From a virus: a stretch of DNA of 33,756 nucleotides. Positions 3,546-33,756 of this stretch are shown piece after piece. The position numbers and the translations under genes are program-made. Positions within the stretch are counted from its first letter, which is position 1. Each line of letters begins with the position of its first letter. A model generated the notes under the pieces. The model worked only from the letters and a program-made list of their open reading frames with translations, was not told the origin of the DNA and searched no databases. The stretch is from IMG/VR virus record IMGVR_UViG_3300032401_000043, positions 1 to 33,756 of that record; one strand, written 5' to 3'.

Positions 3546-3549
3546 CAGT

Positions 3550-4117: not shown

Positions 4118-4123
4118 CAAAAT

Positions 4124-4193: not shown

Positions 4194-4202
4194 CAAAAAT
4201 AT

Positions 4203-4276: not shown

Positions 4277-4305
4277 CAAATAATACAATAATTAACATAA
4301 AAATA

Positions 4306-4337: not shown

Positions 4338-4354
4338 ATAAAAATAAATAAATT

Positions 4355-4839: not shown

Positions 4840-4842
4840 AAT

Positions 4843-5596: not shown

Positions 5597-5850
5597 CGCG
5601 TGGTTTCCGTGTTCGGAAATAAACAAAAAGAGGGTTGTACCCGCCTAATATGATCCCGTATGATGAGAAGTGGTGTCACTACCACAGGGACCTGATCCGA
5701 TTACTTGAACCTAAGTCGGTTGGTTGGTGTACCAGTAACAGGAGTAAGTTAACACACAAGTTCTAACCTCCCACGTAAGTGGGTTGCCGCTGAAGCCTCA
5801 AGACGCTATTCGGTATTAGGGACAGTCAGAAATGATTGGGCGAATTTTTT
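5597..5850 (+). ncRNA. Structured noncoding tail with terminator
   Basis: No gene. Hairpins TTTCCG-TGTT-CGGAAA (near 5605), GTGGT/ACCAC (near 5671) and CCCAC-GTAA-GTGGG (near 5769, a GNRA loop). It ends with ATTCG/CGAAT enclosing CAGTC/GATTG and a long T-run at 5845, a likely terminator for the whole array. Confidence 0.5.
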
Positions 5851-5880
5851 TTTAAAATTTTAACACTTTACAAAAGAGTG

Positions 5881-5890
5881 GATATTTATA
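5881..5890 (+). promoter_or_regulatory. Late-type promoter element GATATTTATA
   Basis: Recurring ATATTTATA element 14 bases before the ATG at 5905. Confidence 0.55.
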
Positions 5891-5904
5891 ATTAAAATAA
5901 CATT

Positions 5905-6201
5905 ATGAAAAAAATTATAAAACTTACAGAATCAGATTTATCACGTATTGTTAAACGTGTAATTAAAGAAGAAGATGAAATGGAAGGTAGAAGTATGTCC
6001 ATTACGGTAGAAGATGTGTTTAAGGAGGTTAGGAACGCTCTTCACGAACTTGGTATGTATGATGATGCATCTATGGGAGAAAAGGCAATGAATTTGGCTA
6101 AAATGATTATGAGTAACATGCAAGATGACTTGTCTTACGTTACTGAAAATTATGAGGATCAACTTTATGAGATTCTTGGTGATGAAGAAGAAGAATATTA
6201 A
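5905..6201 (+). CDS. Small acidic putative virion protein with KLTESDLxRIVKRVIKE tag
   Basis: 98 residues. The N-terminus (KIIKLTESDLSRIVKRVIKEE after the start) is a conserved opening that recurs at 21206 and, in part, at 30535; such openings are common in proteins of Bacteroidetes phages. The tag ends in I-K-E, matching the [L/I]-x-E cleavage pattern of T4 prohead protease. The rest is acidic and helical and ends in DEEEEY. It has its own late-type promoter and no neighbours in the same unit. I infer packaging into the head; no enzymatic function is visible. Confidence 0.7.
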   Translation: MKKIIKLTESDLSRIVKRVIKEEDEMEGRSMSITVEDVFKEVRNALHELGMYDDASMGEKAMNLAKMIMSNMQDDLSYVTENYEDQLYEILGDEEEEY

Positions 6202-6230
6202 ATAAAACTTGACACTTTACAAAAGTTTCA

Positions 6231-6240
6231 TATATTTATA
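6231..6240 (+). promoter_or_regulatory. Promoter with TTGACA and TATATTTATA
   Basis: TTGACA near 6210 and TATATTTATA at 6231-6240. It mixes a host-like upstream box with the late-type element and precedes the second leader-like unit. Confidence 0.5.
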
Positions 6241-6261
6241 ACAAAACAAATAAAAACGCAA

Positions 6262-6336
6262 ATGAAAAATTTACATATCATAACATTATTGGGGGCTGAT
6301 TTAGAAGCTGGTGATATTACTATGGTGATGGTGTGA
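6262..6336 (+). CDS. Possible leader peptide (24 aa)
   Basis: ATG to TGA, beginning MKNLHIITLLGADLEAGDI and ending TMVMV. Placed as at 301: promoter, short ORF, intrinsic terminator (6363), boxA (6392), then a tRNA gene. Unlike the first leader I find only a weak alternative pairing with the terminator, so attenuation is less certain. Alternatively the short frame is incidental to a regulated terminator. Confidence 0.4.
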   Translation: MKNLHIITLLGADLEAGDITMVMV

Positions 6337-6362
6337 TAAATTAATACATAATATTTTTTAAG

Positions 6363-6391
6363 ACCCATTTCCAAAAGAGATGGGTTTTTTT
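6363..6391 (+). terminator. Intrinsic terminator ahead of second tRNA cluster
   Basis: Stem ACCCAT/ATGGGT with a T7 run. It lies between the short leader ORF and a boxA site, the same order as at 447-519. Confidence 0.8.
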
Positions 6392-6400
6392 GTTCTTTGA
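6392..6400 (+). promoter_or_regulatory. boxA-like antitermination site
   Basis: GTTCTTTGA inside GTTCTTTGACATATTGGTAA, identical over 20 bases to the site at 511. It lies directly after a terminator and 22 bases before tRNA-Leu. Confidence 0.65.
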
Positions 6401-6421
6401 CATATTGGTAATGATAGTAAT

Positions 6422-6501
6422 ACCCGGGTGGTGAAATTGGTATACACGCTGTGTTTAAGCCGCAGTTCTTCGGAATGAGGGTTCGACTCCCTCCTCGGGT
6501 A
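6422..6501 (+). tRNA. tRNA-Leu (TAA)
   Basis: Acceptor ACCCGGG/CTCGGGT, D-arm of Leu type (GGTGAAATTGGTATACACG), anticodon stem CTGTG/CGCAG around TTTAAGC (anticodon TAA), variable arm with TTC-TTC-GGAA, T-arm GAGGG/CCCTC with TTCGACT, discriminator A. Confidence 0.93.
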
Positions 6502-6521
6502 CAAAAAAAAATGAAAAAAGA

Positions 6522-6553
6522 TTTGGCAGATCAAAATAGATTACATATCTTTG
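6522..6553 (+). promoter_or_regulatory. Host-type promoter, copy 1 of a repeated cassette
   Basis: TTTG at 6522-6525 and TATCTTTG at 6546-6553, 20 bases apart. The surrounding sequence (AAAAGATTTGGCAGATCAA) is nearly repeated at 6791 and 9917. Confidence 0.75.
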
Positions 6554-6556
6554 TAA

Positions 6557-6760
6557 TGTTAGGTTAAAGAAATGGTTTTGTGACTTTCCATATAAAAAGT
6601 TATCCCTCAATCTTTAGGGGTTGGGGGGATGATTGAAAAAGAGGGATGTACTCCCAAATACGTCGAAAGATGGTAATCATAGGTTCCCCTGTAAGTACCT
6701 AACAGGCGTAGTGCATTTGGCGATACTAATGTGACTGAGGTGGGGTTACCCACCTCTTTT
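6557..6760 (+). ncRNA. Independent small RNA of about 200 bases
   Basis: Bounded by a strong host-type promoter and a strong terminator (6737-6760), with no gene between. Hairpin ATCCCTC-AATC with GATT-G-AAAAA-GAGGGAT near 6601-6647, then CCTGT/ACAGG near 6699. Looks like a self-contained regulatory RNA. 6S-like size, but I cannot show the 6S central bubble. Function unknown. Confidence 0.55.
6737..6760 (+). terminator. Intrinsic terminator of the small RNA
   Basis: Perfect eight-base stem GAGGTGGG/CCCACCTC with a four-base loop and T4 run. Confidence 0.85.
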
Positions 6761-6790
6761 ATTTATAACACAAAAATAAATGAAAAAAGA

Positions 6791-6822
6791 TTTGGCAGAT
6801 CAATAAAGATTATATATCTTTG
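6791..6822 (+). promoter_or_regulatory. Host-type promoter, copy 2 of a repeated cassette
   Basis: TTTG at 6791-6794 and TATCTTTG at 6815-6822. Nearly identical to the promoter at 9917 over more than 35 bases. Confidence 0.75.
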
Positions 6823-6826
6823 TAAG

Positions 6827-7005
6827 ACAAATAAGGTATGTGAGATATAAGAAACGGGAAACTCGTAAAGTTTATTAACCTGTTAACACAAGATAGTGAA
6901 ACGAGAGTGTGTGTTAACTATGGATCGCAAAACTTAAAATATCAATTAATATGTGTGGGTGCGAATCCTACCGAACAGGAAAGGTGGTTGATATTAATTG
7001 TTTTT
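6827..7005 (+). ncRNA. Structured RNA leading into tRNA-like element C
   Basis: Starts at a host-type promoter and contains GTTAACAC/GTGTTAAC and a ten-base CAATTAATAT/ATATTAATTG stem that closes a 38-base loop just before element C. It shares a CAAAACTTAA block with the starts of the noncoding regions at 10068 and 11539. No gene seen. Confidence 0.5.
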
Positions 7006-7060
7006 AGTTAGGTGGAGGGTTATAGGTGCTCCCGGACAGGTTCGAGTCCTGTCCTGACTA
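7006..7060 (+). ncRNA. tRNA-like element C, no anticodon arm
   Basis: Only 55 bases: acceptor AGTTAGG/CCTGACT, D-arm GGAG/CTCC with an 11-base loop, three-base linker, T-arm ACAGG/CCTGT with TTCGAGT, discriminator A. There is no room for an anticodon arm, so it cannot decode. It has the shape of a tmRNA tRNA-like domain or a decoy. Confidence 0.6.
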
Positions 7061-7067
7061 CTAATAT

Positions 7068-7138
7068 TGCGTTATGGTGTATTTGGTTGCATAATGGGCT
7101 CATAACCCAAAGGAGTGGTTCGAATCCACGCTACGCAA
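7068..7138 (+). tRNA. tRNA-Met (CAT), initiator-like
   Basis: Anticodon stem TGGG/CCCA around CTCATAA. Three stacked G-C pairs are the initiator mark. T-arm GTGG/CCAC with TTCGAAT, 3' end CGCAA as in bacterial fMet tRNAs. The acceptor has two mismatches at its base, and the first pair is T-A rather than the usual C-A mismatch. Confidence 0.78.
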
Positions 7139-7356
7139 CTGGAGTGAATCAGTAGAGTTCAACTTGAGAATGAGGTAACATACACTTAAAATATGCGTTA
7201 CAATGTATCAAGTCGTTTATTCAGTTTTGAGCGTTAAAAACTGGCGTTTTGTGGAGATAGTTTAATGTAAAAAACTTACACCCGTGATGTTAGTGGGTTT
7301 GACCACCCCTTTCCCGTTAATAACCGTGGCAACTGAACCTAAAGGTTGTCACAACT
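7139..7356 (+). other. Noncoding structured spacer
   Basis: No gene. Hairpins GTAAC/GTTAC (near 7175-7203) and CAGTTTT/AAAACTG (near 7220-7242). A stretch from about 7252 to 7317 resembles a worn tRNA (D-arm-like GTTTAATG to AAAC, T-arm-like GTGG/CCAC), but its anticodon loop lacks U33. Confidence 0.4.
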
Positions 7357-7430
7357 GCGGGTGTAGCTCAATTGATTAGAGCACTAGCCTTCCAAGCTGG
7401 GGGTTGTGGGTTTGAGTCCCACCGCCCGCT
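7357..7430 (+). tRNA. tRNA-Gly (TCC)
   Basis: Acceptor GCGGGTG/CGCCCGC, D-arm GCTCAATTGATTAGAGC, anticodon stem CTAGC/GCTGG around CTTCCAA (anticodon TCC), T-arm GTGGG/CCCAC with TTTGAGT, discriminator T. Confidence 0.94.
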
Positions 7431-7435
7431 CAATA

Positions 7436-7534
7436 GATAGGATAAACGTGCAGTAATGTATGGATTACGCCTTTATGGGTTAATCACCCATTGATGATCG
7501 GATATAGATGGGAGGTTCCGGTTAAGTCCTATCG
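7436..7534 (+). ncRNA. tRNA-like element with AAT in anticodon position
   Basis: Perfect acceptor-like stem GATAGGA/TCCTATC, a hairpin GTAAT/ATTAC in the D-arm position and a perfect ATGGG/CCCAT stem with seven-base loop TTAATCA. The T-arm is not canonical. AAT would mean Ile, but this anticodon is not used by bacteria, so it is more likely a decayed or repurposed tRNA. Confidence 0.4.
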
Positions 7535-7544
7535 ACGTTATTAT

Positions 7545-7619
7545 GGGGGTGTAGCTCAATTGGTTGAGCGGCTCGTTTGCAACGAGAGGGTTATGTGGGT
7601 TCAAGTCCCACCACTTCCA
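7545..7619 (+). tRNA. tRNA-Ala (TGC)
   Basis: Acceptor GGGGGTG/CACTTCC, D-arm GCTCAATTGGTTGAGC, anticodon stem CTCG/CGAG around TTTGCAA (anticodon TGC), T-arm GTGGG/CCCAC with TTCAAGT, discriminator A. The usual G3-U70 Ala mark fits (G3 opposite T). Confidence 0.93.
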
Positions 7620-7671
7620 CTTCGTTATTTACTTTTTCCACAAATTATGGTATTTATATATAAAAAGGTAT

Positions 7672-8454
7672 ATGAAAACTTGTAAAAATTGTGGTAAAGA
7701 AATTAAAGAAAAAAACACTTATTGTTCTTTGACTTGTAGAAATGTTTATGTAAACAAAAATTTAAGGGATTATAGTAAAATTGGGAAAAGTTTAAAAAAA
7801 AATTCAATAGAAAAATATTTACAAAACCCTAAAAAATGTAAAAAATGTGAAAATTTTATAGATTATGATAATAGAATTAATTTATATTGTTCTAAGGATT
7901 GTAGTAAAACAACAATCAACCAAACTAATAGAGAGGGTCTTAAATATAAAATGTCAGATCAAGGTAGGGAGAATATAATAGAATCAAATTTAAGTAGATT
8001 AGGTGATGAATATATACATTATATGGAAAACCCAAATAGGTGTATTCATTGCGAATTGGTGTTGGTATTTAAAAAACGTAAGAATAAATACTGTACAAAT
8101 GATTGTAGAAGAAAAAATGAACGAGAATTAATGACGGAATACCATAAATATAAAATAGATTGTAAATTTAACTTTAACTTATCTAAATTCCCTTTGGAAT
8201 TTGAATTTACTTTAATAGAAAAATATGGTTGGTATAAACCTAAAAATAGGGGGGATAATTTAGGGGGTGTTAGTCGTGACCATATTTATTCGGTAAATGA
8301 GGGGTTTAAAAATAATGTTAATCCCAAAATTATTTCTCATCCAGCCAATTGTAGGTTAATGATTCATACGGATAACATATCTAAAAATAAAAAATCCGAC
8401 ATTTTAATGGAGGATCTTTTGAAAAAAATTGAGGATTGGAATAAAAAATATTAA
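7672..8454 (+). CDS. HNH homing endonuclease with three zinc-finger repeats
   Basis: 260 residues. Three Cys4 knuckles come first: CKNCGKEI with YCSLTC, CKKCENFI with YCSKDC, and CIHCELVL with YCTNDC. The C-terminal nuclease core is SRDHIYSVNEGF, NVNPKIISHPANCRLM and HTDNISKNKKSD, where DH, N and H are the catalytic pattern. The start at 7672 is chosen because upstream in-frame ATGs lie within tRNA-Ala. A TATTTATATA element lies 12 bases before it. Third HNH of the tRNA island and the most diverged of the three. Likely a selfish nuclease sited after tRNA-Ala. Confidence 0.82.
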   Translation: MKTCKNCGKEIKEKNTYCSLTCRNVYVNKNLRDYSKIGKSLKKNSIEKYLQNPKKCKKCENFIDYDNRINLYCSKDCSKTTINQTNREGLKYKMSDQGRENIIESNLSRLGDEYIHYMENPNRCIHCELVLVFKKRKNKYCTNDCRRKNERELMTEYHKYKIDCKFNFNLSKFPLEFEFTLIEKYGWYKPKNRGDNLGGVSRDHIYSVNEGFKNNVNPKIISHPANCRLMIHTDNISKNKKSDILMEDLLKKIEDWNKKY

Positions 8455-8517
8455 TTTGATTATTTCAGTTAATATTATTAAGTTTATCTAACTAAAAAAG
8501 TAAAAAAAAAAGATGAA

Positions 8518-8733
8518 ATGGGAAAAGTTAAGTTAGGTATCTGGGGAGTTGTAATCCTCACATTTATCTACCTGTTGGTTATGAATGTATTTTTTGAATA
8601 CGTGATTAATAGGGAGGTGGATATAATTCTACAAGCGGGTGGGTCAGTTATAGCCTTGATGTACACCGTCTTTATGATAAGGTTAGTAGTAAATAAATTA
8701 TTTAACAAATTAAAAAAAGAAGAAAAAAAATGA
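8518..8733 (+). CDS. Small two-span membrane protein
   Basis: 71 residues with two hydrophobic segments (LGIWGVVILTFIYLLVMNVF and GGSVIALMYTVFMIRLVV) and a very basic tail (NKLFNKLKKEEKK). Its stop overlaps the start of the prohibitin-like gene (ATGA), so the two are coupled and probably act together in the membrane. No family recognised. Confidence 0.65.
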   Translation: MGKVKLGIWGVVILTFIYLLVMNVFFEYVINREVDIILQAGGSVIALMYTVFMIRLVVNKLFNKLKKEEKK

Positions 8734-9635
8734 TTAGTATTGGAATTTTAGTGATCTCGTTGATCGTAGGTGTGTTTATGTTTTTAAATAACGCAAAAAA
8801 TAATGTGGATATGCCGGTTTTAAAACCAGCTTTGGTTGTGGTAATGGGACTTTTAATTAGTTTTATCCAACCATATTCGTTGGAAAGAATTGATGCTGGT
8901 AACAAAGGTATTGTGGTTAATTTAAGTGGTGCTGAACGTGGTGTCGCAAAATACCAATACAAAACAGGTTGGGTTGTATATAATAGTTGGACAACACAGG
9001 TATTGGAGTTTCCGATCTTCCAACAACATATTGAGTATGATGATCAATCTGTAATTTTAAAGGGTGGATTTAGTGCAACGATCAAACCAACATTCAACTA
9101 CTCATTACGTGAGGATGCGATTGGTGATATGTTTGTAAACTTAAGACGACCAATTGTGGATGTTGAACAAGGGTGGTTGAAAAACGCAATTATTGGAGCA
9201 GTTAATGATGTTGCAAATACTTGGGAAGTTGATAGTATTTTTAATCACCGACAAGCGTTTGAATATGCGATTGTTGTTGAATGTAATGTAAGATTATCTA
9301 AATGGTTTAATGTTTCTCAATTGAGAACAAATATTACACCACCTGAAACCTTACAGGAGGCGATTATCGCAAAGACAAAGGCAATCCAACAAGCGGAAGC
9401 ATCAGAACAACAAGCAATTGCCGCAATCTCTGAGGGTAAACGTAAGGTGGCCGTGGCAAGAGCCGATTCTGCTGAAACTGTGATTAACGCAAATGCTTCG
9501 GCACTTGCAATTAAGATCAAACAAAGTCAATTAACTCCAATGTATATTGAGTTCTTAAAGGCCCAAAGCTGGGATGGGGTCCTTCCAACAACGGTTGCAG
9601 GTGGTTCAGGGTTGTTTTTAAACCTAAACAAATAA
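8730..9635 (+). CDS. Prohibitin / SPFH (Band 7) family membrane protein
   Basis: 301 residues. Two N-terminal hydrophobic stretches (residues 1-22 and about 30-50) anchor the protein. Then comes the Band 7 domain from about residue 58 (AGNKGIVVNLSGAERGV, YKTGWVVYNSWTTQVLEFPI, SVILKGGFSATIKPTFNYSL) and a C-terminal coiled coil rich in Ala, Glu and Gln (AIIAKTKAIQQAEASEQQAI, GKRKVAVARADSAE), the classic prohibitin layout and length. SPFH proteins form large rings or cages in membranes and guard proteases such as FtsH. In phage it may remodel or protect the host membrane. It sits between a coupled small membrane protein and a lipoprotein gene. Confidence 0.85.
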   Translation: MISIGILVISLIVGVFMFLNNAKNNVDMPVLKPALVVVMGLLISFIQPYSLERIDAGNKGIVVNLSGAERGVAKYQYKTGWVVYNSWTTQVLEFPIFQQHIEYDDQSVILKGGFSATIKPTFNYSLREDAIGDMFVNLRRPIVDVEQGWLKNAIIGAVNDVANTWEVDSIFNHRQAFEYAIVVECNVRLSKWFNVSQLRTNITPPETLQEAIIAKTKAIQQAEASEQQAIAAISEGKRKVAVARADSAETVINANASALAIKIKQSQLTPMYIEFLKAQSWDGVLPTTVAGGSGLFLNLNK

Positions 9636-9910
9636 TGAAAGGTAAATTAATTGGGGGGATGATCTTTATGATCACCCTCCTTTTATTGGGAAGTTGTAGT
9701 TGTCCTGACGAAGAGGTTATATATAAAAATAATTTCAAATATAAAGTAGGACAATTTGTACATCATAGGGTAAGTGAAGATAAAGTATTAATTATTGATA
9801 CTATGAGGTATTATGATTGTAGTTCCGATACTGATGTTGAGTTAATGTATAGAGGTATAAATTCAGCTGAAAATGAAAATGTTTACACAGAAATTGAATT
9901 AAAACCGTAA
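9635..9910 (+). CDS. Small lipoprotein, unknown
   Basis: 91 residues. Signal peptide MKGKLIGGMIFMITLLLLGS ends in a lipobox (LLGSC), so Cys21 should be lipidated and the protein anchored in a membrane. The mature part (SCPDEEVIYKNNFKYKVGQF to YTEIELKP) is small and probably beta-rich. The start overlaps the stop of the prohibitin-like gene (TAATG), giving a three-gene membrane operon. It could be a superinfection-exclusion lipoprotein, but nothing in the sequence proves that. Confidence 0.7.
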   Translation: MKGKLIGGMIFMITLLLLGSCSCPDEEVIYKNNFKYKVGQFVHHRVSEDKVLIIDTMRYYDCSSDTDVELMYRGINSAENENVYTEIELKP

Positions 9911-9916
9911 AAAAGA

Positions 9917-9948
9917 TTTGGTAGATCAATAAAGATTACATATCTTTG
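9917..9948 (+). promoter_or_regulatory. Host-type promoter, copy 3 of a repeated cassette
   Basis: TTTG at 9917-9920 and TATCTTTG at 9941-9948. Drives tRNA-Glu and the following structured RNA. Confidence 0.75.
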
Positions 9949-9994
9949 TAAGACAAACCAAGTATGGTGACGGTCAGGAGAGACTGACAAATTT

Positions 9995-10066
9995 GGCCCA
10001 TTCGTCTAAAAGTAAGGACATATGGTTTTCATCCATAAAATCTCGGAGCGTTACCGGGATGGGCTA
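9995..10066 (+). tRNA. tRNA-Glu (TTC)
   Basis: Acceptor GGCCCAT/ATGGGCT, D-stem GTCT/GGAC, anticodon stem TATGG/CCATA around TTTTCAT (anticodon TTC), T-arm CTCGG/CCGGG with the unusual loop AGCGTTA, discriminator A. A hairpin GTCAG/CTGAC lies just upstream. Confidence 0.88.
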
Positions 10067-10457
10067 CAAAACTTAAGATTAATTACCTTAAGAATGGTAG
10101 GTTATAAACTACCGATTGATTATAGTGTATGGTCGCACGACAGAACGAAGTAATTAACACTCGCATTAGCGGAGGGATGAAAGGGGATGTAAGAATATGG
10201 TTCGTATCCATTTTAATCAACAATGATAGTGGTTTTCCCCATTCAACGGATGTCGACAATCCAGAATGGATCAGGAATTCATCACCCCCTGAAAAGGACA
10301 GTGCCGAGGCCTCGTAAAACTACGATTATGCACTTAAGATTGGAGCGAGACGGGTACTCCATCACTATCAAAAAATTGTGTTGTTCCCTTGAGAACGGAA
10401 TAATTTAGAGTTATAAAGAAACTATACAACAACACAGAGGTTCTCAACCTCAAATTT
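10067..10457 (+). ncRNA. Structured noncoding RNA with kissing-loop module
   Basis: No credible gene. Long-range helix TGATAGTG (near 10231) with CACTATCA (near 10363) closes a domain. Local hairpins GGTAG/CTACC and GGAG/CTCC. The 3' end repeats the module of 4843-5232: GTGTTGT (10378-10384) with ACAACAC (10429-10435), TTCC/GGAA hairpin exposing TTGAGAA (10389-10395), GAGG/CCTC hairpin exposing TTCTCAA (10441-10447). It is followed six bases later by tRNA-like element D. Confidence 0.62.
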
Positions 10458-10570
10458 GGTCAGGTGAGCGGAATGGCATCGCACTCGGAGATCAATCCCG
10501 AGTATCTCTTTCGACAGAGGTTATCCAGGTGAATAATGGCACCACACAGGTTCGATTCCTGTCCTGACAA
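10458..10570 (+). ncRNA. tRNA-like element D
   Basis: Acceptor GTCAGG/CCTGAC, D-arm GCG/CGC, T-arm ACAGG/CCTGT with TTCGATT. The core closely matches element E: ACTCGG/CCGAGT with a nine-base loop, ATCTCT/AGAGGT, and GGTG-AATAATGG-CACC. Paired changes against E support these helices. The variable first loop (nine bases here, five in E) argues against a decoding anticodon. Confidence 0.65.
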
Positions 10571-10585
10571 CTAAAAATAAAAATT

Positions 10586-10786
10586 ATGGAAAAAAACGAC
10601 ATTAAAAAGTCACTATATAAAGAAAAACCTAACGCTCACATACAGTTTGTAAGAAAAGGGATTGTATATTATTATGCGGACTTAGAAGAAATGAAAGTTC
10701 ATTTTCAAGTACCTGTTGAGGATATGGGTGATGCTGATTTTTTACCAACTATGGAAGGTAAATTATTAATTAGATGGATTGTTTAA
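10586..10786 (+). CDS. Hypothetical protein (66 aa)
   Basis: Starts MEKNDIKKSLYKEKPNAHIQ, with an aromatic middle (GIVYYYADLEEMKVHFQVPV), ending LIRWIV. Soluble, mixed charge; no family recognised. It follows tRNA-like element D by 15 bases and is probably read from the same transcript. The next host-type promoter overlaps its 3' end. Confidence 0.6.
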   Translation: MEKNDIKKSLYKEKPNAHIQFVRKGIVYYYADLEEMKVHFQVPVEDMGDADFLPTMEGKLLIRWIV

Positions 10787-10809
10787 ATTAAAAAAAATTA
10801 CTATATTTG
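10779..10809 (+). promoter_or_regulatory. Host-type promoter (TTG / TATATTTG)
   Basis: TTG at 10779-10781, inside the end of the preceding gene, and TATATTTG at 10802-10809. It would start the 0.5 kb structured RNA that follows. Confidence 0.65.
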
Positions 10810-10812
10810 TAA

Positions 10813-11349
10813 GACAATTAGAGAGAACCGTGAGTCCGCGGATGGAAACAACTATAGGACGATCATACGTCATACTCTAATTAAGACCCCACGATTAACA
10901 GAAGTGTCCGACTGTTATGGTGTGTGATCCTGACTTGAAGGCTTCAAGGCTATGGGGGAGGCTACACAGGTTAGGTAAGGATTCCCCATTATGGATAGAG
11001 GGGGTAAGGGGTCTTAAGTGATCGTAATACAATCCACAAGTTGTGAGAACACTGAACAATCTTACAATATACACTCTTCTTCCGAGTGAGACTCACCACG
11101 TAACTTTGGGGGTATGGTGAAGATGTTCTGAGGGCAGCACTGAACGCCATATACGAAAGACTATGACTCACTTGATTAGGTTAGTAGGTATGGACGGAGT
11201 GTGAAAGTAGAAACCCCCGATGGATGGTTACTATGATCTCTAACTTAAGAGGTATAGTCGGGAGGGATATATTAGTTAAGGGAAACTATATAAAATCTAA
11301 GGTCAGTTCCGATGTAACCCCTATCGGTGTAAGTGTCTGACCTTTTTAT
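10813..11349 (+). ncRNA. Structured RNA of about 540 bases
   Basis: No credible gene in 560 bases. Nested helices are visible: AATTAGAG/CTCTAATT (10816-10823 with 10876-10883), TTAAGACCCC/GGGGTCTTAA (from about 10881 with about 11007-11016), hairpin CACTC/GAGTG near 11073-11089, and a 3' stem AAGGTCAG/CTGACCTT with CCGAT/ATCGG inside it (11299-11345), followed by T5. The order of end helix, multi-branched body and closing hairpin resembles the giant phage RNAs (ROOL or GOLLD). It runs into tRNA-like element F. Confidence 0.65.
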
Positions 11350-11490
11350 AGTTAGGTGACGGAATTGGCTAACGTGCTGGTCAGTACCCAAAAGAGTGTT
11401 GAATGGGGGAAACTGGTGGACATATCACAAACACGAGTGGTAGGAGATTATATCTTTAAATCCTTACAGGTTCGAACCCTGTCCTGACTA
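11350..11490 (+). ncRNA. tRNA-like element F
   Basis: Acceptor AGTTAGG/CCTGACT, D-arm ACG/CGT with GAATTGG, T-arm ACAGG/CCTGT with TTCGAAC, discriminator A. At 141 bases it is the longest member. The core holds a GTGTT/AACAC helix and an AGGA/TCCT hairpin and no anticodon arm. It follows the 0.5 kb structured RNA by a few bases. Confidence 0.6.
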
Positions 11491-11707
11491 CAAACGAGAA
11501 AAAGACACTCGTAGGGTTTTTAAGTATCCCTCTCAAAACTTAACGGAGCTGGTACTACCCCGTTAAAGGGTACTCGTTGGGAATAAGGAAGGAAGATCCT
11601 CCTCTCCCCCAAGTAAGGATTGACGTTTTCAAGGGGTAAGACCCGCAGGTTTTTGAAATAGTAAAAACCGAATTATCCACTTATAGTTGTCTCCTATAGG
11701 GATTTTT
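11491..11707 (+). other. Noncoding structured spacer
   Basis: No gene. Hairpins ACGAG/CTCGT, TACCC-CGTTAAA-GGGTA and GGTTTTT/AAAAACC. It contains the CAAAACTTAA block shared with 6930 and 10068. Confidence 0.45.
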
Positions 11708-11780
11708 GGTCCATAGGTCAAACGGTTAAGATGTTTCGTTGTCTGCGAAGTCGGAGTGGGTTCGACTCCCACATGGACCG
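11708..11780 (+). tRNA. tRNA-Asp (GTC)
   Basis: Perfect acceptor GGTCCAT/ATGGACC, anticodon stem TTTCG/CGAAG around TTGTCTG (anticodon GTC), T-arm GTGGG/CCCAC with TTCGACT, discriminator G as expected for Asp. Confidence 0.94.
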
Positions 11781-11832
11781 CAATAAGATCGTAAATCCAA
11801 GTAACCGCTTGGTAGGTTTTAGATCTTTAATA

Positions 11833-11872
11833 ATGATGTTGGGAGAATATCCTAACATCATTTAATGTTTTA
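11833..11872 (+). terminator. Terminator after tRNA-Asp
   Basis: Eight-base stem ATGATGTT/AACATCAT with a partly paired loop, then a broken T-run. A second stem-loop (AAGATC/GATCTT with CCAAG/CTTGG) precedes it at about 11785-11827. Confidence 0.6.
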
Positions 11873-11886
11873 AATAGAAAATAAAT

Positions 11887-11917
11887 TTTGAAAATCAATT
11901 AAAAATACATATCTTCG
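11887..11917 (+). promoter_or_regulatory. Host-type promoter (TTTG / TATCTTCG)
   Basis: TTTG at 11887-11890 and TATCTTCG at 11910-11917, 19 bases apart, just before the small gene at 11934. Confidence 0.6.
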
Positions 11918-11933
11918 TAGAAACAAAAAAGAT

Positions 11934-12098
11934 ATGGAAAGATTTTCAATGAGACAGGTCATTATTAACAAGTTTGGTGAGACCGAGAAGAATGTAAAAA
12001 CAAGTAGATCAACAAAGAGATCTAATGACAAGATCAAGGATCAAGGTAAGTATATGGTTAAGATCGTTGATGGTGTTAAATATATGGTATTAAAATAA
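11934..12098 (+). CDS. Small basic hypothetical protein (54 aa)
   Basis: Starts MERFSMRQVIINKFGETEKN, highly charged and basic in the middle (TSRSTKRSNDKIKD), ends VKYMVLK. A host-type promoter directly precedes it and tRNA-like element E follows its stop by seven bases, so gene and element are probably co-transcribed. No family recognised. The basic patch would suit nucleic-acid binding, which is a guess. Confidence 0.6.
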   Translation: MERFSMRQVIINKFGETEKNVKTSRSTKRSNDKIKDQGKYMVKIVDGVKYMVLK

Positions 12099-12104
12099 CA
12101 AAAT

Positions 12105-12214
12105 AGTCAGGTGGCGGAATTGGTTATCGCACTCGGTGATCCCGAGTATCTATATCGACATAGATTACCCAAGTGAATAATGGCACTGTGCAGGTTCGAA
12201 TCCTGTCCTGACTA
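12105..12214 (+). ncRNA. tRNA-like element E
   Basis: Acceptor AGTCAGG/CCTGACT, D-arm GCG-GAATTGGTTAT-CGC, T-arm with TTCGAAT, discriminator A. Core helices match element D with compensating changes: ACTCGG/CCGAGT, ATCTAT/ATAGAT, AGTG-AATAATGG-CACT. The first could be read as an anticodon arm with GAT (Ile), but D has a longer loop at the same place, which argues against decoding. Confidence 0.65.
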
Positions 12215-12338
12215 CGAGGGGTGTTGGTATTCCTGACGGGTTTAGATGTGTTACTTCCCTTCCCACAACCAACAATACAATGGGATTAAGTAAGGCGCAA
12301 CTCTTTGGCAACGTTATCAGATTAAACAGTTGCATTTT
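12215..12338 (+). other. Noncoding structured spacer
   Basis: No gene. Helix TGTTGGT/ACCAACA (from 12222) and a GCAAC/GTTGC pair near the 3' end that leads into a short T-run before tRNA-Met. Confidence 0.4.
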
Positions 12339-12412
12339 GGACCTGTAACTCAGTTGGTTAGAGTGCAACACTCATAATGTTGAAGTCCCTGGTTCGAGTC
12401 CAGGCTGGTCCA
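12339..12412 (+). tRNA. tRNA-Met (CAT), elongator type
   Basis: Acceptor GGACCTG/CTGGTCC with one T-T mismatch, D-arm ACTCAGTTGGTTAGAGT, anticodon stem CAACA/TGTTG around CTCATAA (anticodon CAT), T-arm CCTGG/CCAGG with TTCGAGT, discriminator A. Lacks the three G-C initiator mark, so an elongator Met tRNA fits best. Last tRNA of the island. Confidence 0.9.
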
Positions 12413-12447
12413 CAATTTATTAAATAATATTTAAAAAACTTTATAAT

Positions 12448-16944: not shown

Positions 16945-17833
16945 AAAATTAGATTATCCGTTCAGGAGTAAGTAATGAAACTGATAAAGATATTGGGCCG
17001 TGTATAGTCCATAAAATAAACTACGAAAGTAGGATAAAGTGAACCCTTAAGTGTGTTGGGTTTGCGGTTTAGGAAACTGAACTTGAGTACACAAGCGGGA
17101 TACCGTTTAATCTTTAGTACCGAGGTCAACGATGTAGGGAAAATGGTTAAATGATAAGGTGATGTGGGTCATCTTATTGCGATGGGAACATCTATAGGAA
17201 TAACTCGTAGGGATATTGCAAAAAATATGGTTATCCGATTATATTATTGCGTGTTTCAGTATCAGAGGGTACTTAAAACCGAAAGGTATGTTAGAGAACG
17301 GGTGGTGCCGTTACTAACCTTGACAATCTCCTACCAAGGGGTAAATCTCGAAGTAATCTTAAAATATCGAAATGGGGACATTTCACGAAGCAGTTTGGTA
17401 TTTCGTTGTTCAAAAGACAACGAATCTGAAAGACGGACCACTGCTTTGATCAATCCACAACACAAAAACTTTTATGGAAAAGGTAAAACTAAAACTAAAA
17501 AGCAAAAGTGTCCGTCAGGTAATAGTGAAAGGTGACTACATAGTAATGAGCCGTTCATTGCACAGAAAGATCGCAAGTCTGACTGTATTCTTACTAAAAA
17601 CCTCTATTCCCGCAAGGAAAAGTTGGGGAGGCATCCTCGAAGAGAGTTGAGTAATAAGAGAGTAACTAGTATCTCAAGGAGTGGTACACCTAAAAGACCG
17701 TCACTGAGGAATACTTCTCAAAAGGAAGTGGATACGAAGGGAAACAATAATCCTTCAAAAGATTCTCAACAAAAACTATAATCTCAGGTTTTTATTTTTT
17801 AGGTAAAACTTATTAAGTTAAAAAAATTAATTA
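16945..17833 (+). ncRNA. Large ornate structured RNA (about 0.85 kb, GOLLD/ROOL-like candidate)
   Basis: Over 850 bases with no believable gene, its own promoter, boxA and terminator. Many perfect hairpins: CTAC-GAAA-GTAG (17021-17032), ATAAGGTGA/TCATCTTAT (17154-17177), GATG-GGAA-CATC (17181-17192), ACC-GAAA-GGT (17278-17287), GTTAG/CTAAC with inner AACGG/CCGTT (17290-17318), GAAATG-GGGA-CATTTC (17369-17384), TTCGTTGT/ACAACGAA (17402-17424), long-range GACGGAC/GTCCGTC (17432-17438 with 17510-17516), ACTTC/GAAGT (17713-17729). Four of these have GNRA-type loops. Size, phage setting and nearby tRNA genes recall GOLLD RNAs; identity is not proven. An open frame at 17164-17535 is rejected, since it cuts across these helices. 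Confidence 0.75.
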
Positions 17834-17963: not shown

Positions 17964-17973
17964 AGTTACTAAG

Positions 17974-18365
17974 TGGAGGTGGAGCGACTCGAACGCTCGT
18001 CCAAAACATCCCGTAAAACAAGGACTACACGTTTAGGTTGGTATTTTCTAACACCCCAAAATATTTGATTTTTCACACCGATCAATAAACGGTGACAGTT
18101 ATTACGGGGAACCATACCCGTTTTGTTTCTTTTTGGGTAGATACTACACCCTTTATCACTTCTGTTCCTAAGCGTATGTGAACCGGCTTGCGTTTCCGTT
18201 ACTTATTAAGCTACAGATACTTCAGAAGTACGGACTAATCCAATAACTTCCATTTTCGATAATACGTCGCCGATTGTTTTTCTGAATCAGTTTTTAAGGA
18301 GATTAATTCAGTCCCCACGTGCCCTTTATTTTCAGCCGACATCTGTCAAATCCAAAAACACCCCC
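17974..18365 (-). ncRNA. ssrA: tmRNA (transfer-messenger RNA)
   Basis: Read on the minus strand it begins GGGGGTGTTTTTGGATTTGA, the tmRNA 5' signature, and ends with T-arm GAGCG-TTCGAGT-CGCTC and acceptor CACCTCC-A, which pairs with GGGGGTG. Length about 392 bases, normal for one-piece tmRNA. CCA is not encoded. The tag frame (18271 down to 18206) starts at a GGC resume codon after AACAATC, opens G-D-V-L-S-K, ends T-S-E-V-S-V-A and is followed by two TAA stops. Bacteroidetes host tags end in ALAA, so this tag differs. It would rescue stalled ribosomes and label the products. It has its own promoter and boxA. Confidence 0.9.
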
Positions 18366-21497: not shown

Positions 21498-22760
21498 TTA
21501 TTCAACCTCCTTTTTCTTTTTAGTTCTTTTTGGTTTTTCTGTGGTAATTAACTTTGATGGTTCGGTAATCGTTATAACATCATCTTTTACTATAAGAGTG
21601 TAGTTAGTATTTTCCTTAACATCACCAATTAAAATACCTTCAGATATTAGATCCTCAATTTTATCTTGTATTGCTCGTTTTAGAGGACGGGCACCAAACA
21701 TCTCATCAAATCCAACTTTTGAAATCATCTCAATCACCGAATAATCGGCAATAAAGTTATATTTCATTTTTGTTAATCTATTTAACAAAATGTCAATCTC
21801 AAGTTTAACAATCTTATCAATATGATCTTTCTTAAGTGAATTAAAGATAATAACATCGTCAATTCTGTTAAGGAATTCAGGGGCGAAAAATTTACTTAAC
21901 TCAGATTTAAGAATATCTCGTTTATGTTCTTCCTCAACATAATCACTCTTCTTGAATCCCATTCCACCACCAAAATCTTGTAATTTTCTAACCCCTATAT
22001 TTGAAGTCATAATAATTAAACAATTTTTGAAATTAATCTTTCTACCCAAACTATCTGTAAGGTGACCATCGTCCAAAATCTGTAATAATGTTGAAAAAAT
22101 ATCTTTATGAGCCTTCTCAACCTCATCAAATAAAATTACTGAGTACGGTTTATTTTTTACTTGCTCCGTAAGTTGCCCACCATCATCTGAATTAACATAC
22201 CCAGGAGGTGACCCAATAAGTTTTGAAATTGAGTGTTTTTCTTGGTATTCGGACATATCCACACGGATCATATTATCTTCATTACCAAAGATTTCTTTTG
22301 CTAGTTTCTTAGCCAAATGTGTGTTGTGAGATAAAATACCGTTGGTGTAATATCTTCTAGTGGATCCCTCTTTTAATTCTAAATCATACATCACTTCTTC
22401 ATATCCTAAATTGGTAACTTCAATAACTTCTGATTCCGTTAGATTACCATTATCATCAGACACCATAACAAACGAACCAATTTCTAAATCTTTAACAAAT
22501 TTCTCAGTTAAACCAACTGACTCAAAAGTTGTTTTATTATATACGGTAACAAATACAATATGGTTATCGGCACATTTAAGTTCTTTTCCATCGCTTAATT
22601 TAAGATGATATACTTCATATGGTATTGTCTCATGTAATGCTTCTATATCAACAAATCCATCATCAGTTAAAACTTCATACTCGATAATTTTGGTTGTTTT
22701 AGTAATTTTTTTTAATGATTCTAATTCGTGTTTGTCGACTCTTTTTTTAATTTCTTCCAT
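21498..22760 (-). CDS. Split-intein C-part fused to ClpC-type ATPase C-terminal half
   Basis: 420 residues. Residues 1-146 are the C-terminal intein piece: it carries block B (KELKCADNHIVF), block F (EEVMYDLELKEGS) and block G (GILSHN), with Thr147 as the +1 residue. From 147 the sequence is the D2 ATPase of a ClpA/ClpC unfoldase: THLAKKLAKEIFG resumes exactly after the Walker A Lys, SVILFDEVEKAH is Walker B, IIMTSNIG sensor 1, FLNRIDDVI the Arg finger region, GARPLKRAIQ sensor 2. MGF near GGGMGFKK could be the ClpP-docking loop. Trans-splicing with the product of 24067-25398 would rebuild a protein of about 683 residues. Confidence 0.88.
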   Translation of the reverse strand: MEEIKKRVDKHELESLKKITKTTKIIEYEVLTDDGFVDIEALHETIPYEVYHLKLSDGKELKCADNHIVFVTVYNKTTFESVGLTEKFVKDLEIGSFVMVSDDNGNLTESEVIEVTNLGYEEVMYDLELKEGSTRRYYTNGILSHNTHLAKKLAKEIFGNEDNMIRVDMSEYQEKHSISKLIGSPPGYVNSDDGGQLTEQVKNKPYSVILFDEVEKAHKDIFSTLLQILDDGHLTDSLGRKINFKNCLIIMTSNIGVRKLQDFGGGMGFKKSDYVEEEHKRDILKSELSKFFAPEFLNRIDDVIIFNSLKKDHIDKIVKLEIDILLNRLTKMKYNFIADYSVIEMISKVGFDEMFGARPLKRAIQDKIEDLISEGILIGDVKENTNYTLIVKDDVITITEPSKLITTEKPKRTKKKKEVE

Positions 22761-22770: not shown

Positions 22771-24021
22771 TTATTTATTATTTAGAAAATCAATACATTT
22801 ATTTATTATTTCTTGTTTATTTCCCCATCTATATTCCGAATCCCATATTACTAACACATCAAAACCTTTTTTGATGGCGACATCCAATTTCCTTTTATCC
22901 TTATTCCACATCTCTTGTGCTGTTATCTCTTTTCTAAATGGATGTGGGTAATCTGTCGATTTATACTTTTTTGGGTTCCCATGAAACATATCGCCATGAA
23001 ACTCAATTATTTTTTTATTGTTGAAATCAGTAAAATCATATAACCAAATTCCACCTTCTGATTCGAATTTATTTAATTTATATTCTTTATTATGAGTTGC
23101 AAAATAAATATCATTTCTTTTATCAATAACATAGGTTTCCAATAAAACGTTAAACAACTCTTGAGATATTTTAGAATAACCAATATTTAAGTTACCATTA
23201 GTTGATAGTGATTTTGACCATTTATGTTGTCTTTCAGTAAAAATTTTTAACCCTTCCTCCTCACCATATTTTTCTATACAAATTTTTTTAGAAAATGTTT
23301 TTTGCCTTTCAGATAATTTTATTTTACTTTCTTTTTTAGAATAACCTTTTTTTAACCAATAACCTAATTGAGTGCTAGTTGTTGATGAATAATTGTTTGG
23401 GTTATCTTTTTTTAATTTAATTAGTTTATTAGAGTTTTCTTTTTGTAATTCACTTATTTTAATCTTAGAGTCATTTATTGAATAACCCCTGTTTAACCAA
23501 TATAATTCAGTTGTTGGTGTTGATGTGATATTTTTGATTTCAATTTCTGAAAATCCATTTTCTTTTAAATTTTCTTTTGAAACAACAAATCTATTCTTAA
23601 CTAGTTTAGAATTTTTAGATTGTAAACCAAAAATTTCATTAGTCGCTTCTTCTTTAGTGTAACCTTTATTAATCCAATACTCCTCACATAAACGATTCCT
23701 TTGTTTAATTTCTTTATTGCGTTTATTTATTTCTTCTAAAGCATTTTCTTTATACCAACCACGTTCAATGAAATACTCAATATTACCCCATTTTTTAGTT
23801 TTAAAACTATAATTTTTAACTAACCAACCACGCATCAACGATAACGAAACAATACCCTCTTGTTCTCTTAGTTTAACCATCAAAGATTCAATTTCTTTTT
23901 TAATCATTTCGTTATCGTATCGTATGTTTTTATCTAGTTTTAAAACATGATTTTTAAAACTTTCCGTATATGGAAAAACTTCATTCACCTCTTTAACGCC
24001 TCTGATGGTTTTTATTTTCAT
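22771..24021 (-). CDS. Homing endonuclease, Vsr-like, in the split-intein gap
   Basis: 416 residues. The N-terminal and middle parts hold repeated small motifs (YWINKGYTKEEATNEI, YWLNRGYSINDSKIKISELQ, YWLKKGYSKKESKIKLSERQ), probably DNA-binding modules. The C-terminus is Vsr-like: ESEGGIWLYDFTD, KKIIEFHGDMFHGNPKKY, then MWNKDKRKLDVAIKKGF and VLVIWDSEYRW. This matches the endonuclease type described in fractured split-intein genes from environmental phages. It lies between the two intein halves on the same strand, with its own late-type promoter (24035-24044). It is expected to cut intein-free alleles and spread the locus. Confidence 0.85.
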   Translation of the reverse strand: MKIKTIRGVKEVNEVFPYTESFKNHVLKLDKNIRYDNEMIKKEIESLMVKLREQEGIVSLSLMRGWLVKNYSFKTKKWGNIEYFIERGWYKENALEEINKRNKEIKQRNRLCEEYWINKGYTKEEATNEIFGLQSKNSKLVKNRFVVSKENLKENGFSEIEIKNITSTPTTELYWLNRGYSINDSKIKISELQKENSNKLIKLKKDNPNNYSSTTSTQLGYWLKKGYSKKESKIKLSERQKTFSKKICIEKYGEEEGLKIFTERQHKWSKSLSTNGNLNIGYSKISQELFNVLLETYVIDKRNDIYFATHNKEYKLNKFESEGGIWLYDFTDFNNKKIIEFHGDMFHGNPKKYKSTDYPHPFRKEITAQEMWNKDKRKLDVAIKKGFDVLVIWDSEYRWGNKQEIINKCIDFLNNK

Positions 24022-24066: not shown

Positions 24067-25398
24067 CTAATTGGCGTCGGTTATGGTATTTTTAAAAAAT
24101 TCTATTGAAACAGTCTCAATAAGACCAGTTTCTTTATTCCTAATAGTGATTAAACTATCATCACAAATACATTTACCCACACCTGTTGATCCCAAGAATA
24201 TGAATGAACCAATTGGTTTATTTGGATCCTTAATTCCGACTCTATTTCTTCTTATTGCTTTTGATATTTTGGCAACCGCTTCTTCTTGACCGATAACCAA
24301 ATCATTAAGGGTATCCTCAAGATTAACTAAAGATTTTGTTTCATCAATTGTAATTTTACTTACAGGTATTTTGGTCATATTGGATACTACCTCATATACA
24401 AGTTCTGGTGAAATTTCTTTCTTTTTAATTGTTAATTCATCATCAAACTTCTTTTTTTCTTCTGCAAGTTTTGTGATAATTTTTCGTTCTTTATCTCTCA
24501 ACTCTGCCGCCATCTCAAATTTTTGACTTTTAATAACGTCAATTTTTTCTTGTTTGATATCAGAGGCTTGTTGTTTTAATTTTTCAATTACTTCAGGTAG
24601 TTTTATATCCACTTGGGATCTGGCACCAACCTCATCTAAAATATCAAACGCTTTATCGGGAAATTCACGATCTGTGATATAACGATCCGCAAGTTCAACA
24701 CAAAGACCCAAAATCTCATCTGTGTATGAAACTTTATGGTGTGCCTCATATTTTGCCTTACTATTTTGTAGGATGATTAATGTTTCTTCTTTTGTTGATG
24801 GATCAACAATAACCTTTTGGAAACGTCTTTCTAACGCCCCATCTTTTTCAAAGTTCTTACGATATTCATCTAATGTTGTTGCACCAACACATTGTATCTC
24901 TCCTCGGGCAAGTGCCGGTTTAAAGATGTTGGATGCATCCAATGATCCTGATGAACTACCCGCACCAACGATTGTATGGATCTCATCAATGAATACCACA
25001 ATATTGGGGTTGTTCTGAAGTTCCTCAATAATCACTTTCATTCTTTCCTCAAACTGACCACGATATTTTGTTCCTGCAACAATTGAGTTCATATCCAAAG
25101 ATACGATACGTTTATCCATCAAATTTTTAGGACAATCACCTTCATATATTTTCATTGCCAAACCTTCAACAATCGCAGTTTTACCACATCCAGGTTCCCC
25201 AACAATAATTGGGTTATTTTTCTTTCTTCTTGATAGGATTTGAGCAATTCTCATTATCTCAGATTCTCTACCAACTACAGGGTCTAATTTACCCTCTTCT
25301 GCTAGTTTATTAAGGTCTCTACTGAAATTATCTAATACTGGTGTTCCTTTATCTGACGACTTTTTGTTTTTGTCCTCACTATCCATATTTTCTATCAT
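24067..25398 (-). CDS. ClpC-type ATPase N-terminal half fused to short split-intein N-part
   Basis: 443 residues. No N-terminal Clp repeat domain. D1 ATPase: Walker [16 protein letters not shown], Walker [10 protein letters not shown], Arg finger region ALERRFQ. A middle domain with a UVR-like motif ([19 protein letters not shown]) marks it as ClpC-like. D2 begins ([16 protein letters not shown]) and stops at the Walker A Lys. Cys410 then starts the intein N-part ([16 protein letters not shown]), only 34 residues long and holding block A alone; block B is in the partner gene. Such a short N-part marks an atypical split intein. Full activity needs trans-splicing, since neither half has a complete D2 P-loop. 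Confidence 0.9.
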
Positions 25399-31963: not shown

Positions 31964-32971
31964 ATGAGTTTTACTAAAGAACAATTAACGTTAGAGTATG
32001 TGAAGTGTATGAAAGATACTCCATATGCGTTAAAGACTTACCTACAAACATACGACAATACGGTATCACAATATGTTCCATTACAACTATTTCCTGACCA
32101 AGTATCATTGTTGGAGGATTACGATAAATATAATGAGAACATTGCATTAAAGTATCGTCAGGCGGGTGTATCAACGGTTACTGCCGCTTGGGTTTCCAAG
32201 AAACTTGCATTTGCCAAAAAAAATAAACCTGAAAAAATTCTTATAATTGCAAACAAACTTGATACGTCATTGGAGATGGCAAATAAGATTAAGGCATTTG
32301 TTGCCCAATGGCCAAAATGGGTTGGTGCAGATTTTTCGGCAGAAAAAAATTCACAAAAACATTATAAATTAACAAATGGTTGTGAGGTCAAAGCGGTTGC
32401 AACATCAAAGGATGCACTTCGTGGATTTACCCCAACAATATTAATATTTGATGAGGCGGCCTTTATTGAAGCTGATAGTGATTTTTGGGCGGCTTGTATG
32501 GCATCCCTATCTACGGGGGGTAAAGTAATCGTTGTTTCTACACCAAACGGATATGATCCAATTTATTATGAAATCTATGATCAGGCATTGAGAAATATGA
32601 ATGATTTTAAAATTACTGAAATGTATTGGTTTAGAGATCCAAGATATACTAGGGATTTATATTTAGTGAAAACTGAAAACATAATACATTATTTGTTAAA
32701 TAAAGAAGAATATACTGAAGACCAAATATTGAGTTGGGAAGGAATACCGTTTGAAACTCGGAATTATGATGACCTAAAAACAATTATGGATTCGGGGTAT
32801 AAACCTTGTTCTGTTTGGTTTGAGGGGATGGTTAAAAAACTTAAATACGATAAAAGGAAGGTATCTCAGGAGTTAGAGTGTGTTGATGGGAACACATTAG
32901 TAACAATAAAAGACACGATAACCGGAGATATTAAGAAAATAAAAATTTCAGAATTATATGAAATAATTTAG
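31964..32971 (+). CDS. terL: Large terminase ATPase part fused to short split-intein N-part
   Basis: 335 residues. T4 gp17-type ATPase: adenine/Q region LQLFPDQVSLLEDYDK, Walker A KYRQAGVST (a deviant P-loop, as in T4), Walker B ILIFDEAAF with catalytic Glu, coupling motif VVSTPNG. The extein stops at residue 305 (RKVSQELE), just before the nuclease domain; the next residue is Cys306 of an intein N-part (CVDGNTLVTIKDTITG to ISELYEII), 30 residues holding block A only. The C-terminal intein piece and terminase nuclease must lie beyond the window. The layout is that of the atypical AceL-TerL split intein known from an Antarctic lake. Confidence 0.9.
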   Translation: MSFTKEQLTLEYVKCMKDTPYALKTYLQTYDNTVSQYVPLQLFPDQVSLLEDYDKYNENIALKYRQAGVSTVTAAWVSKKLAFAKKNKPEKILIIANKLDTSLEMANKIKAFVAQWPKWVGADFSAEKNSQKHYKLTNGCEVKAVATSKDALRGFTPTILIFDEAAFIEADSDFWAACMASLSTGGKVIVVSTPNGYDPIYYEIYDQALRNMNDFKITEMYWFRDPRYTRDLYLVKTENIIHYLLNKEEYTEDQILSWEGIPFETRNYDDLKTIMDSGYKPCSVWFEGMVKKLKYDKRKVSQELECVDGNTLVTIKDTITGDIKKIKISELYEII

Positions 32972-32999
32972 TTGATTTAAGTTTTTGCGGGACTCTTCA

Positions 33000-33009
33000 T
33001 ATATTTATA
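33000..33009 (+). promoter_or_regulatory. Late-type promoter element TATATTTATA
   Basis: Exact copy, three bases before the GTG start of the endonuclease-like gene; supports that start. Confidence 0.5.
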
Positions 33010-33012
33010 TAT

Positions 33013-33756
33013 GTGGGGTCTTTAGAAAAAATAAAAAAGGATATTATTAATACGGGATATATTACCGACATTACAATTGGGACTTATTTCCATATGAAGT
33101 ATAAGGAACTTTATAAAAAAATATTAGAATTAACAAAACCTCTTGAGTCTACCTATAAAGTTAATTTATTATTTAGAGGTAGGGTTTTATTTATAGTAAA
33201 ATATAGTTGTGATTTGTCAAAAATTATGAACCATAATAGTTATTTAACTTTTGATAGAAAACTTGACGATTTTACAGATAGGACGCACAACTCCACTAAA
33301 ATAGGTTGGGATAAGATAAAAAAAGACCTTAATTCTGTTGAAGTTCTTCCATTTAATGAAACTCAAAAATTAGTTAAAAGTATGTCAAATTGTGATATAT
33401 TTGGGAGATCTAAAAATAGAACTCTAATTAAAAAAAACCCAAGGTTATATAATAGTATTTTACATCATTCAAATGAGTTATCAAAATTTGATAGAAATAG
33501 TAATAAATTTCCCTCAAAAATAATTTTTATTAGAGATTATAATTCAGAACTTGATAAATTACTATGTGAGGATTGTCAAATAAAGTACGTAACCTATAAC
33601 ACAAAAAGTTGTGGTTTTAATAAAAAATGTAAAAATTGTTATTATAAGACTGATGATTTTTACCCACAAATAGGTTTTTTTAAAAAAAAATATGGTGAAA
33701 ATTGGGAAGAATTTCATAAAAAAGATAGGGAAAATATTAAAAATAAAAAAGTTAAT
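33013..33756 (+). CDS. Probable homing endonuclease in the terL intein gap (partial)
   Basis: Open from GTG at 33013 to the window edge, 248 codons without a stop; the nuclease domain is not reached. Seen so far: MGSLEKIKKDIINTGYITDI, a Cys-rich finger (CEDCQIKYVTYNTKSCGF, KKCKNCYY) and FFKKKYGENWEEFHKKDREN, which resembles KYGEEEGLKIFTERQHKW in the Clp-locus endonuclease. The GTG start is preferred because no ATG lies near the start of the frame and a late-type promoter ends three bases before. Position right after the intein N-part is the strongest argument. Could instead be an unrelated mobile gene. Confidence 0.65.
   Translation, partial: MGSLEKIKKDIINTGYITDITIGTYFHMKYKELYKKILELTKPLESTYKVNLLFRGRVLFIVKYSCDLSKIMNHNSYLTFDRKLDDFTDRTHNSTKIGWDKIKKDLNSVEVLPFNETQKLVKSMSNCDIFGRSKNRTLIKKNPRLYNSILHHSNELSKFDRNSNKFPSKIIFIRDYNSELDKLLCEDCQIKYVTYNTKSCGFNKKCKNCYYKTDDFYPQIGFFKKKYGENWEEFHKKDRENIKNKKVN

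What the first reader, a model, noticed from the sequence alone, without database searches (positions are those of the whole stretch)
31964..33756. Second atypical split intein in terL, with its endonuclease gene starting at the window edge
Seen: TerL stops before its nuclease domain and ends in a 30-residue piece starting CVDGNTLV with only intein block A, followed by a Cys-rich mobile-type ORF. Known: the AceL-TerL intein has a comparably short N-part in the same protein. Two unrelated essential genes in one phage carry the same rare split layout, which suggests that this endonuclease and intein family is spreading within the genome.
Basis: partly seen in the sequence, partly recalled or inferred. 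Interest (0 to 1): 0.88.

Follow-up and report, generated by a model that had tools for sequence, protein, structure and literature searches.

The report
Split intein with homing endonuclease, terminase
This freshwater phage's DNA-packaging motor gene is cut in two by a known kind of self-splicing protein element that travels with its own DNA-cutting enzyme; close relatives show both the full element and the empty site, so it is a good textbook case but not a new kind of system.

Summary
TerL (31964-32968) ends after its ATPase domain in a 30-residue intein N-part beginning CVDGNTLV. A separate endonuclease ORF starts at 33013 and runs off the record, which ends at 33756. The missing part cannot be read here, but homologous viral contigs show it: the rest of an I-Bth0305I/Vsr-type (EDxHD) nuclease, then a gene with a 108-residue intein C-part ending SHN|C, then the TerL C-terminal half. 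Near-identical phages (99% identical TerL N-part) have an uninterrupted gene, QELE|CNFLGSG, exactly at the predicted junction. This is the AceL-TerL/GOS-TerL/Cat-TerL type of atypically split intein in the 'fractured gene' layout, at its usual terL site; isolated phages carry it too (PX29 is annotated as such). The proposed spread within the genome is not supported: TerL and Clp inteins fall on opposite sides of a fully supported branch. Instead the intein and its nuclease track a phage whose TerL is only 72% identical, which indicates horizontal homing between phages. New member of a known kind; modest interest. Side result: this one site hosts three unrelated endonuclease classes, and some copies have lost the nuclease or look re-fused.

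The parts
31964..32878 (+). TerL N-extein (ATPase part, 305 aa, ends ...KVSQELE)
   Evidence: Pfam Terminase_6N; 99.3% identical to intein-free TerL in L002
32879..32968 (+). Intein N-part (IntN), 30 aa CVDGNTLVTIKDTITGDIKKIKISELYEII; stop codon 32969-32971
   Evidence: Similarity to intein-free DNA stops at 32881; 97% identical to the L082 IntN, which is paired with an IntC there
33013..33756 (+). Free-standing homing endonuclease ORF (248 aa present, cut by the record end; nuclease domain missing)
   Evidence: 79% identical to the first 249 aa of the complete 393-aa endonuclease of L082
24067..25398 (-). Comparison element: Clp-type ATPase N-part with its own IntN (34 aa, 24070-24171) inserted in Walker A GSTGVGK|C
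22771..24021 (-). Comparison element: endonuclease of the Clp split intein; shares only its C-terminal nuclease domain with the TerL one
   Evidence: phrog_22677 E=2.5e-24; hhalign 99.6% over 141 columns
21498..22760 (-). Comparison element: Clp IntC (22323-22760, ends SHN) plus the rest of the Clp ATPase (THLAKKLAK...)
   Evidence: Pfam Intein_splicing and AAA_2

Best explanation
The terL gene of this T4-type phage is a 'fractured gene': a naturally split class-1 intein of the AceL-TerL/GOS-TerL type sits between TerL residue E305 and the following Cys, with an EDxHD (I-Bth0305I/Vsr-like) homing endonuclease gene between the intein halves. Two separate proteins are made: TerL-N-IntN (in the window) and IntC-TerL-C (past the window edge, seen in relatives). 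The intein halves associate, trans-splice through Cys1, the terminal Asn and Cys+1, and ligate the two parts into intact TerL. The endonuclease is inferred to cut intein-free terL alleles of co-infecting relatives, so repair copies the whole cassette into them. Shown by sequence: the layout, catalytic residues, homology, empty alleles, and TerL/intein incongruence. Inferred: trans-splicing activity, cleavage activity and homing.
For: Eight relatives (L082, L086, L087, L088, L090, L091, L093, L094) carry TerL-N+IntN, endonuclease, IntC+TerL-C with ...SHN|C[ND]FLGSGD. 73 of 80 nearest terL loci are uninterrupted (QELECNFLGSG); one ends before the site and six are interrupted. L002/L004 match the window at 94% over ~3.9 kb and stop at the junction. 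The L082 intein matches PDB 6DSL, consensus intein CatC, E=1.6e-13. The nuclease matches 3R3P, I-Bth0305I, by profile E=0.00024 and by predicted fold: best Foldseek hit, VIA Z 10.5; Vsr Z 9.0. No Rfam intron match in window, L082 or L030. C-exteins align to intact TerL at 66-72%. Mobility: the window N-extein is 89.5% identical to L006 and 72.5% to L082, but IntN is 63% and 97%; DNA identity crosses over at the junction; the extein data reject window+L082 as sisters, p-AU 0.0002.
Against: The C-half and the nuclease catalytic domain are not in the window record, so their presence in this particular phage is inferred from relatives. No splicing or cleavage was measured. Foldseek's own E-value for 3R3P is weak (0.096), and only residues 283-393 of the model are covered. 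The intein/endonuclease tree does not quite reject window+L006 (p-AU 0.0755).
Confidence: 0.93

Rival explanations
1. The TerL and Clp split inteins are copies of one element that spread from one gene to the other within this phage genome.
For: Same split layout and related C-terminal nuclease domains in both.
Against: In the intein tree all 21 TerL-site inteins lie on one side of a 100/100 branch, with all Clp inteins, the window's included, on the other. The endonucleases share only the last ~140 residues. Each intein has close relatives at its own site in other phages.
Confidence: 0.04
2. terL is interrupted by a self-splicing RNA intron or by a plain free-standing homing gene, and the 30-residue tail is just read-through.
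For: Phage terL introns with nearby homing genes are known (ICP1, PMC10448857).
Against: No group I or II intron match at gathering threshold. The tail is conserved as an intein block and is paired in relatives with an IntC ending HN|C. L102 carries a contiguous intein at the same site.
Confidence: 0.01
3. Dead remnant or assembly chimera: terL is broken in this record and no functional split intein exists.
For: The record ends inside the endonuclease; some relatives have lost or broken the endonuclease (L023, L022).
Against: Reading frames are intact, and DNA identity to L082 stays high across the junction into the endonuclease. TerL is essential for tailed phages (established knowledge), and both halves are intact in several relatives.
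Confidence: 0.02

Closest known systems
AceL-TerL, GOS-TerL and the consensus Cat-TerL split inteins (PMC11766414; PDB 6DSL)
   Same: Inserted in TerL; short IntN (30 aa here; 25, 37 and 30 aa reported); Cys1 and Cys+1 as in AceL and Cat; IntC homologous to CatC, E=1.6e-13
   Different: Different sequence, from freshwater phages. The IntC of this exact phage was not sequenced. GOS-TerL uses Ser1.
'Fractured genes' with split inteins and a new endonuclease family (Dassa et al. 2009, doi 10.1093/nar/gkp095; paper not held, known here by title and citation)
   Same: Free-standing endonuclease gene between the two split-intein genes
   Different: Host gene is terL; not compared sequence by sequence because the paper could not be opened
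I-Bth0305I (EDxHD homing endonuclease, PDB 3R3P; PMC3943268)
   Same: Homologous catalytic domain by profile and predicted fold; nuclease domain joined to a long DNA-binding region
   Different: I-Bth0305I was described as an intron-encoded enzyme; the N-terminal ~280 residues here were not matched to a known fold
Aeromonas phage PX29 gp17A/gp17B (GU396103), annotated as N-intein and GIY-YIG + C-intein
   Same: Same gene split in two by an intein at the homologous site
   Different: Its endonuclease is GIY-YIG and is fused to the IntC half

Membership tests
AceL-TerL-type atypically split intein | Insertion in terL just before the Cys of the C-x-F-[LM]-G motif | tested here: met
   QELE|C junction; empty alleles read QELECNFLGSG
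AceL-TerL-type atypically split intein | Short IntN (about 25-37 aa) starting with the nucleophile, here Cys1 | tested here: met
   30 aa starting CVDGNT, then stop; reported lengths in PMC11766414
AceL-TerL-type atypically split intein | Long IntC ending in His-Asn, followed by Cys+1 and the TerL C-half | tested here: met
   Met in relatives L082, L086-L091, L093, L094; outside the window record itself
AceL-TerL-type atypically split intein | Sequence homology to a characterised member | tested here: met
   PDB 6DSL CatC, E=1.6e-13 with L082 IntN+IntC; the 30-aa IntN alone gave no PDB hit
AceL-TerL-type atypically split intein | Protein trans-splicing activity | not testable with these tools
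   Needs a wet experiment
EDxHD (I-Bth0305I) homing endonuclease | Catalytic domain homologous to I-Bth0305I/Vsr | tested here: met
   Met for the complete relatives: 3R3P E=0.00024; VIA Z 10.5 (3R3P) and 9.0 (1VSR) over L082 residues 285-393. The window ORF ends before this domain.
EDxHD (I-Bth0305I) homing endonuclease | Conserved E, D, H and D catalytic residues | tested here: inconclusive
   E (N-x-E), D (D-F) and H (Y/F-W/Y/F-H) are conserved in the alignment, the last D in most rows; not mapped residue by residue on I-Bth0305I
EDxHD (I-Bth0305I) homing endonuclease | Cuts an intein-free target and promotes homing | not testable with these tools
   Only indirect support: empty alleles and TerL/intein incongruence

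The most novel reading that the evidence does not exclude
The terL intein split point is a reusable socket: the same split intein site has been occupied independently by three unrelated endonuclease classes (EDxHD, HNH, GIY-YIG), and after nuclease loss the two genes can persist as a bare split intein or re-fuse into one contiguous intein, so fracture is reversible.
Probability: 0.5. Interest if true: 0.5.

Novelty: new member of a known kind. Interest (0 to 1): 0.35.

Why it matters
It adds a well-documented natural case of a split intein moving between phages, with full, empty, nuclease-deleted and contiguous alleles at one site, and new short-IntN inteins of the kind used for protein labelling. 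It also shows that two split inteins in one phage genome need not mean spread within that genome.

Tried and rejected
Own-genome search for sequence past the edge: the record ends at 33756. IntN alone against PDB: no hit. Pfam on the L082 endonuclease: none; L030 only DUF559 at E=0.056. PDB profile search with the Clp endonuclease alignment: nothing meaningful. Genome-contig scan for a host or prophage: no relative, so the host is unknown. Dassa et al. 2009 could not be opened. RNA intron: no Rfam match. Spread within the genome: rejected by the intein tree. AU test of window+L006 on the intein/endonuclease data: not quite rejected (p 0.0755), so the transfer claim rests on the identity crossover and on the extein test. 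L090's TerL N-part aligned badly in the extein tree (long branch) and was not relied on.

Full report
What is in the window. ORF 31964-32971 (335 aa) is the ATPase half of a T4-type large terminase. Its last 30 residues, 32879-32968, begin CVDGNTLV and end in a stop codon. A second ORF begins at GTG 33013 and is still open at the last base, 33756. The record is a 33756-base virus record, so the rest of the element cannot be read from this phage.

Empty alleles. Of the 80 nearest terL loci in viral contigs, 73 read straight through as QELECNFLGSG..., one ends before the site and six are interrupted there. L002-L004, with TerL N-parts about 99% identical, match the window DNA at 94% over up to 3.9 kb; the match ends at 32881, the Cys codon shared by the intein's first residue and the extein's +1 residue. 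That fixes the insertion point between E305 and Cys.

The full element in relatives. L082 has TerL-N+IntN (IntN 97% identical to the window's), a 393-aa endonuclease (79% identical to the window ORF), and a gene of 108 intein residues ending SHN followed by CNFLGSGD and a 285-aa TerL C-half. L086, L087, L088, L090, L091, L093 and L094 have the same order. The IntC half matches the consensus split intein CatC, PDB 6DSL, E=1.6e-13. IntN lengths reported for AceL-TerL (25), GOS-TerL (37) and Cat-TerL (30) bracket the 30 seen here (PMC11766414). No RNA intron was found.

The endonuclease. A profile of nine sequences matches I-Bth0305I, PDB 3R3P, E=0.00024. A predicted structure of the L082 protein (pLDDT 83, pTM 0.46) has 3R3P as its best Foldseek match, though with a weak E-value (0.096); VIA-align gives Z 10.5 for 3R3P and 9.0 for Vsr over residues 285-393. 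The window itself contains only the first 248 residues, not this domain. The N-terminal region, which includes paired cysteines as in a zinc ribbon, is probably the DNA-binding part (inference).

Mobility. The window TerL N-part is closer to L006 (89.5%) than to L082 (72.5%), but its IntN is closer to L082 (97%) than to L006 (63%). DNA identity changes over at the junction: with L082 it rises from about 70% to about 84%, with L006 it falls from about 84% to about 68%. The TerL data reject window and L082 as sisters, p-AU 0.0002. This is the pattern expected of an element that moved between phages. Homing activity itself is inferred.

Spread within the genome. The window's Clp intein (24070-24171 and 22323-22760, minus strand) has the same layout, but belongs to a Clp-site family found in 31 further loci. 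In a tree of 42 inteins, the TerL and Clp inteins are separated by a 100/100 branch. The two endonucleases share only their last ~140 residues. So two related elements were acquired separately; one did not copy itself into the other gene in this phage.

How general it is. At the terL site the gap between the halves holds EDxHD-type nucleases (the window's clade, and Va1, where it is fused to IntC), HNH nucleases (L108, L113, L115, L125) or GIY-YIG nucleases (PX29, 92A1). In L023/L092 the nuclease is deleted down to a C-terminal remnant while both intein halves remain. L102 is contiguous but nests inside the split clade (99/98), which suggests re-fusion, with the caution that it is joined there by a long-branched row (L116). 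PX29 is already annotated with an N-intein and a C-intein, so the kind is known.

Verdict. A real, well-supported split intein with its endonuclease, at a site and in a layout already described.

Noticed in passing
window 17386-17790 (+): GOLLD giant RNA, Rfam RF02032, 316.7 bits, in a genome with a large tRNA array.
   Followed up: no
window 17971-18365 (-): tmRNA, Rfam RF00023, 98 bits, which ARAGORN did not list; unusual cargo for a phage.
   Followed up: no
window 1-12413: 22 tRNA genes interspersed with ORFs that look like HNH-type endonucleases by eye (627-1421, 2176-2751, 7564-8454).
   Followed up: no
L030 5575-7974 and 8176-10341: The TerL C-half carries a second, contiguous LAGLIDADG intein (HN|CDVSRG), and the gp20 portal gene just downstream carries an HNH intein: three inteins in neighbouring packaging genes.
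   Followed up: partly
L022 7110-7283: The endonuclease gene in the terL gap is broken after about 40 residues and followed by a sequence resembling the start of a TnpB protein (from memory), at the contig end.
   Followed up: no
L142, L161, L162: Clp inteins at the first Walker A site (GxPGVGK|C) nest among those of the second Walker A site, suggesting a jump between two P-loops of one protein.
   Followed up: partly
L154 3892-5233: A contiguous Clp intein nested within split ones, a second possible re-fusion.
   Followed up: no
L164 1837-5179 (Vibrio phage VP-1): TerL with a contiguous intein at Walker A and a GIY-YIG endonuclease fused behind the second IntN.
   Followed up: partly
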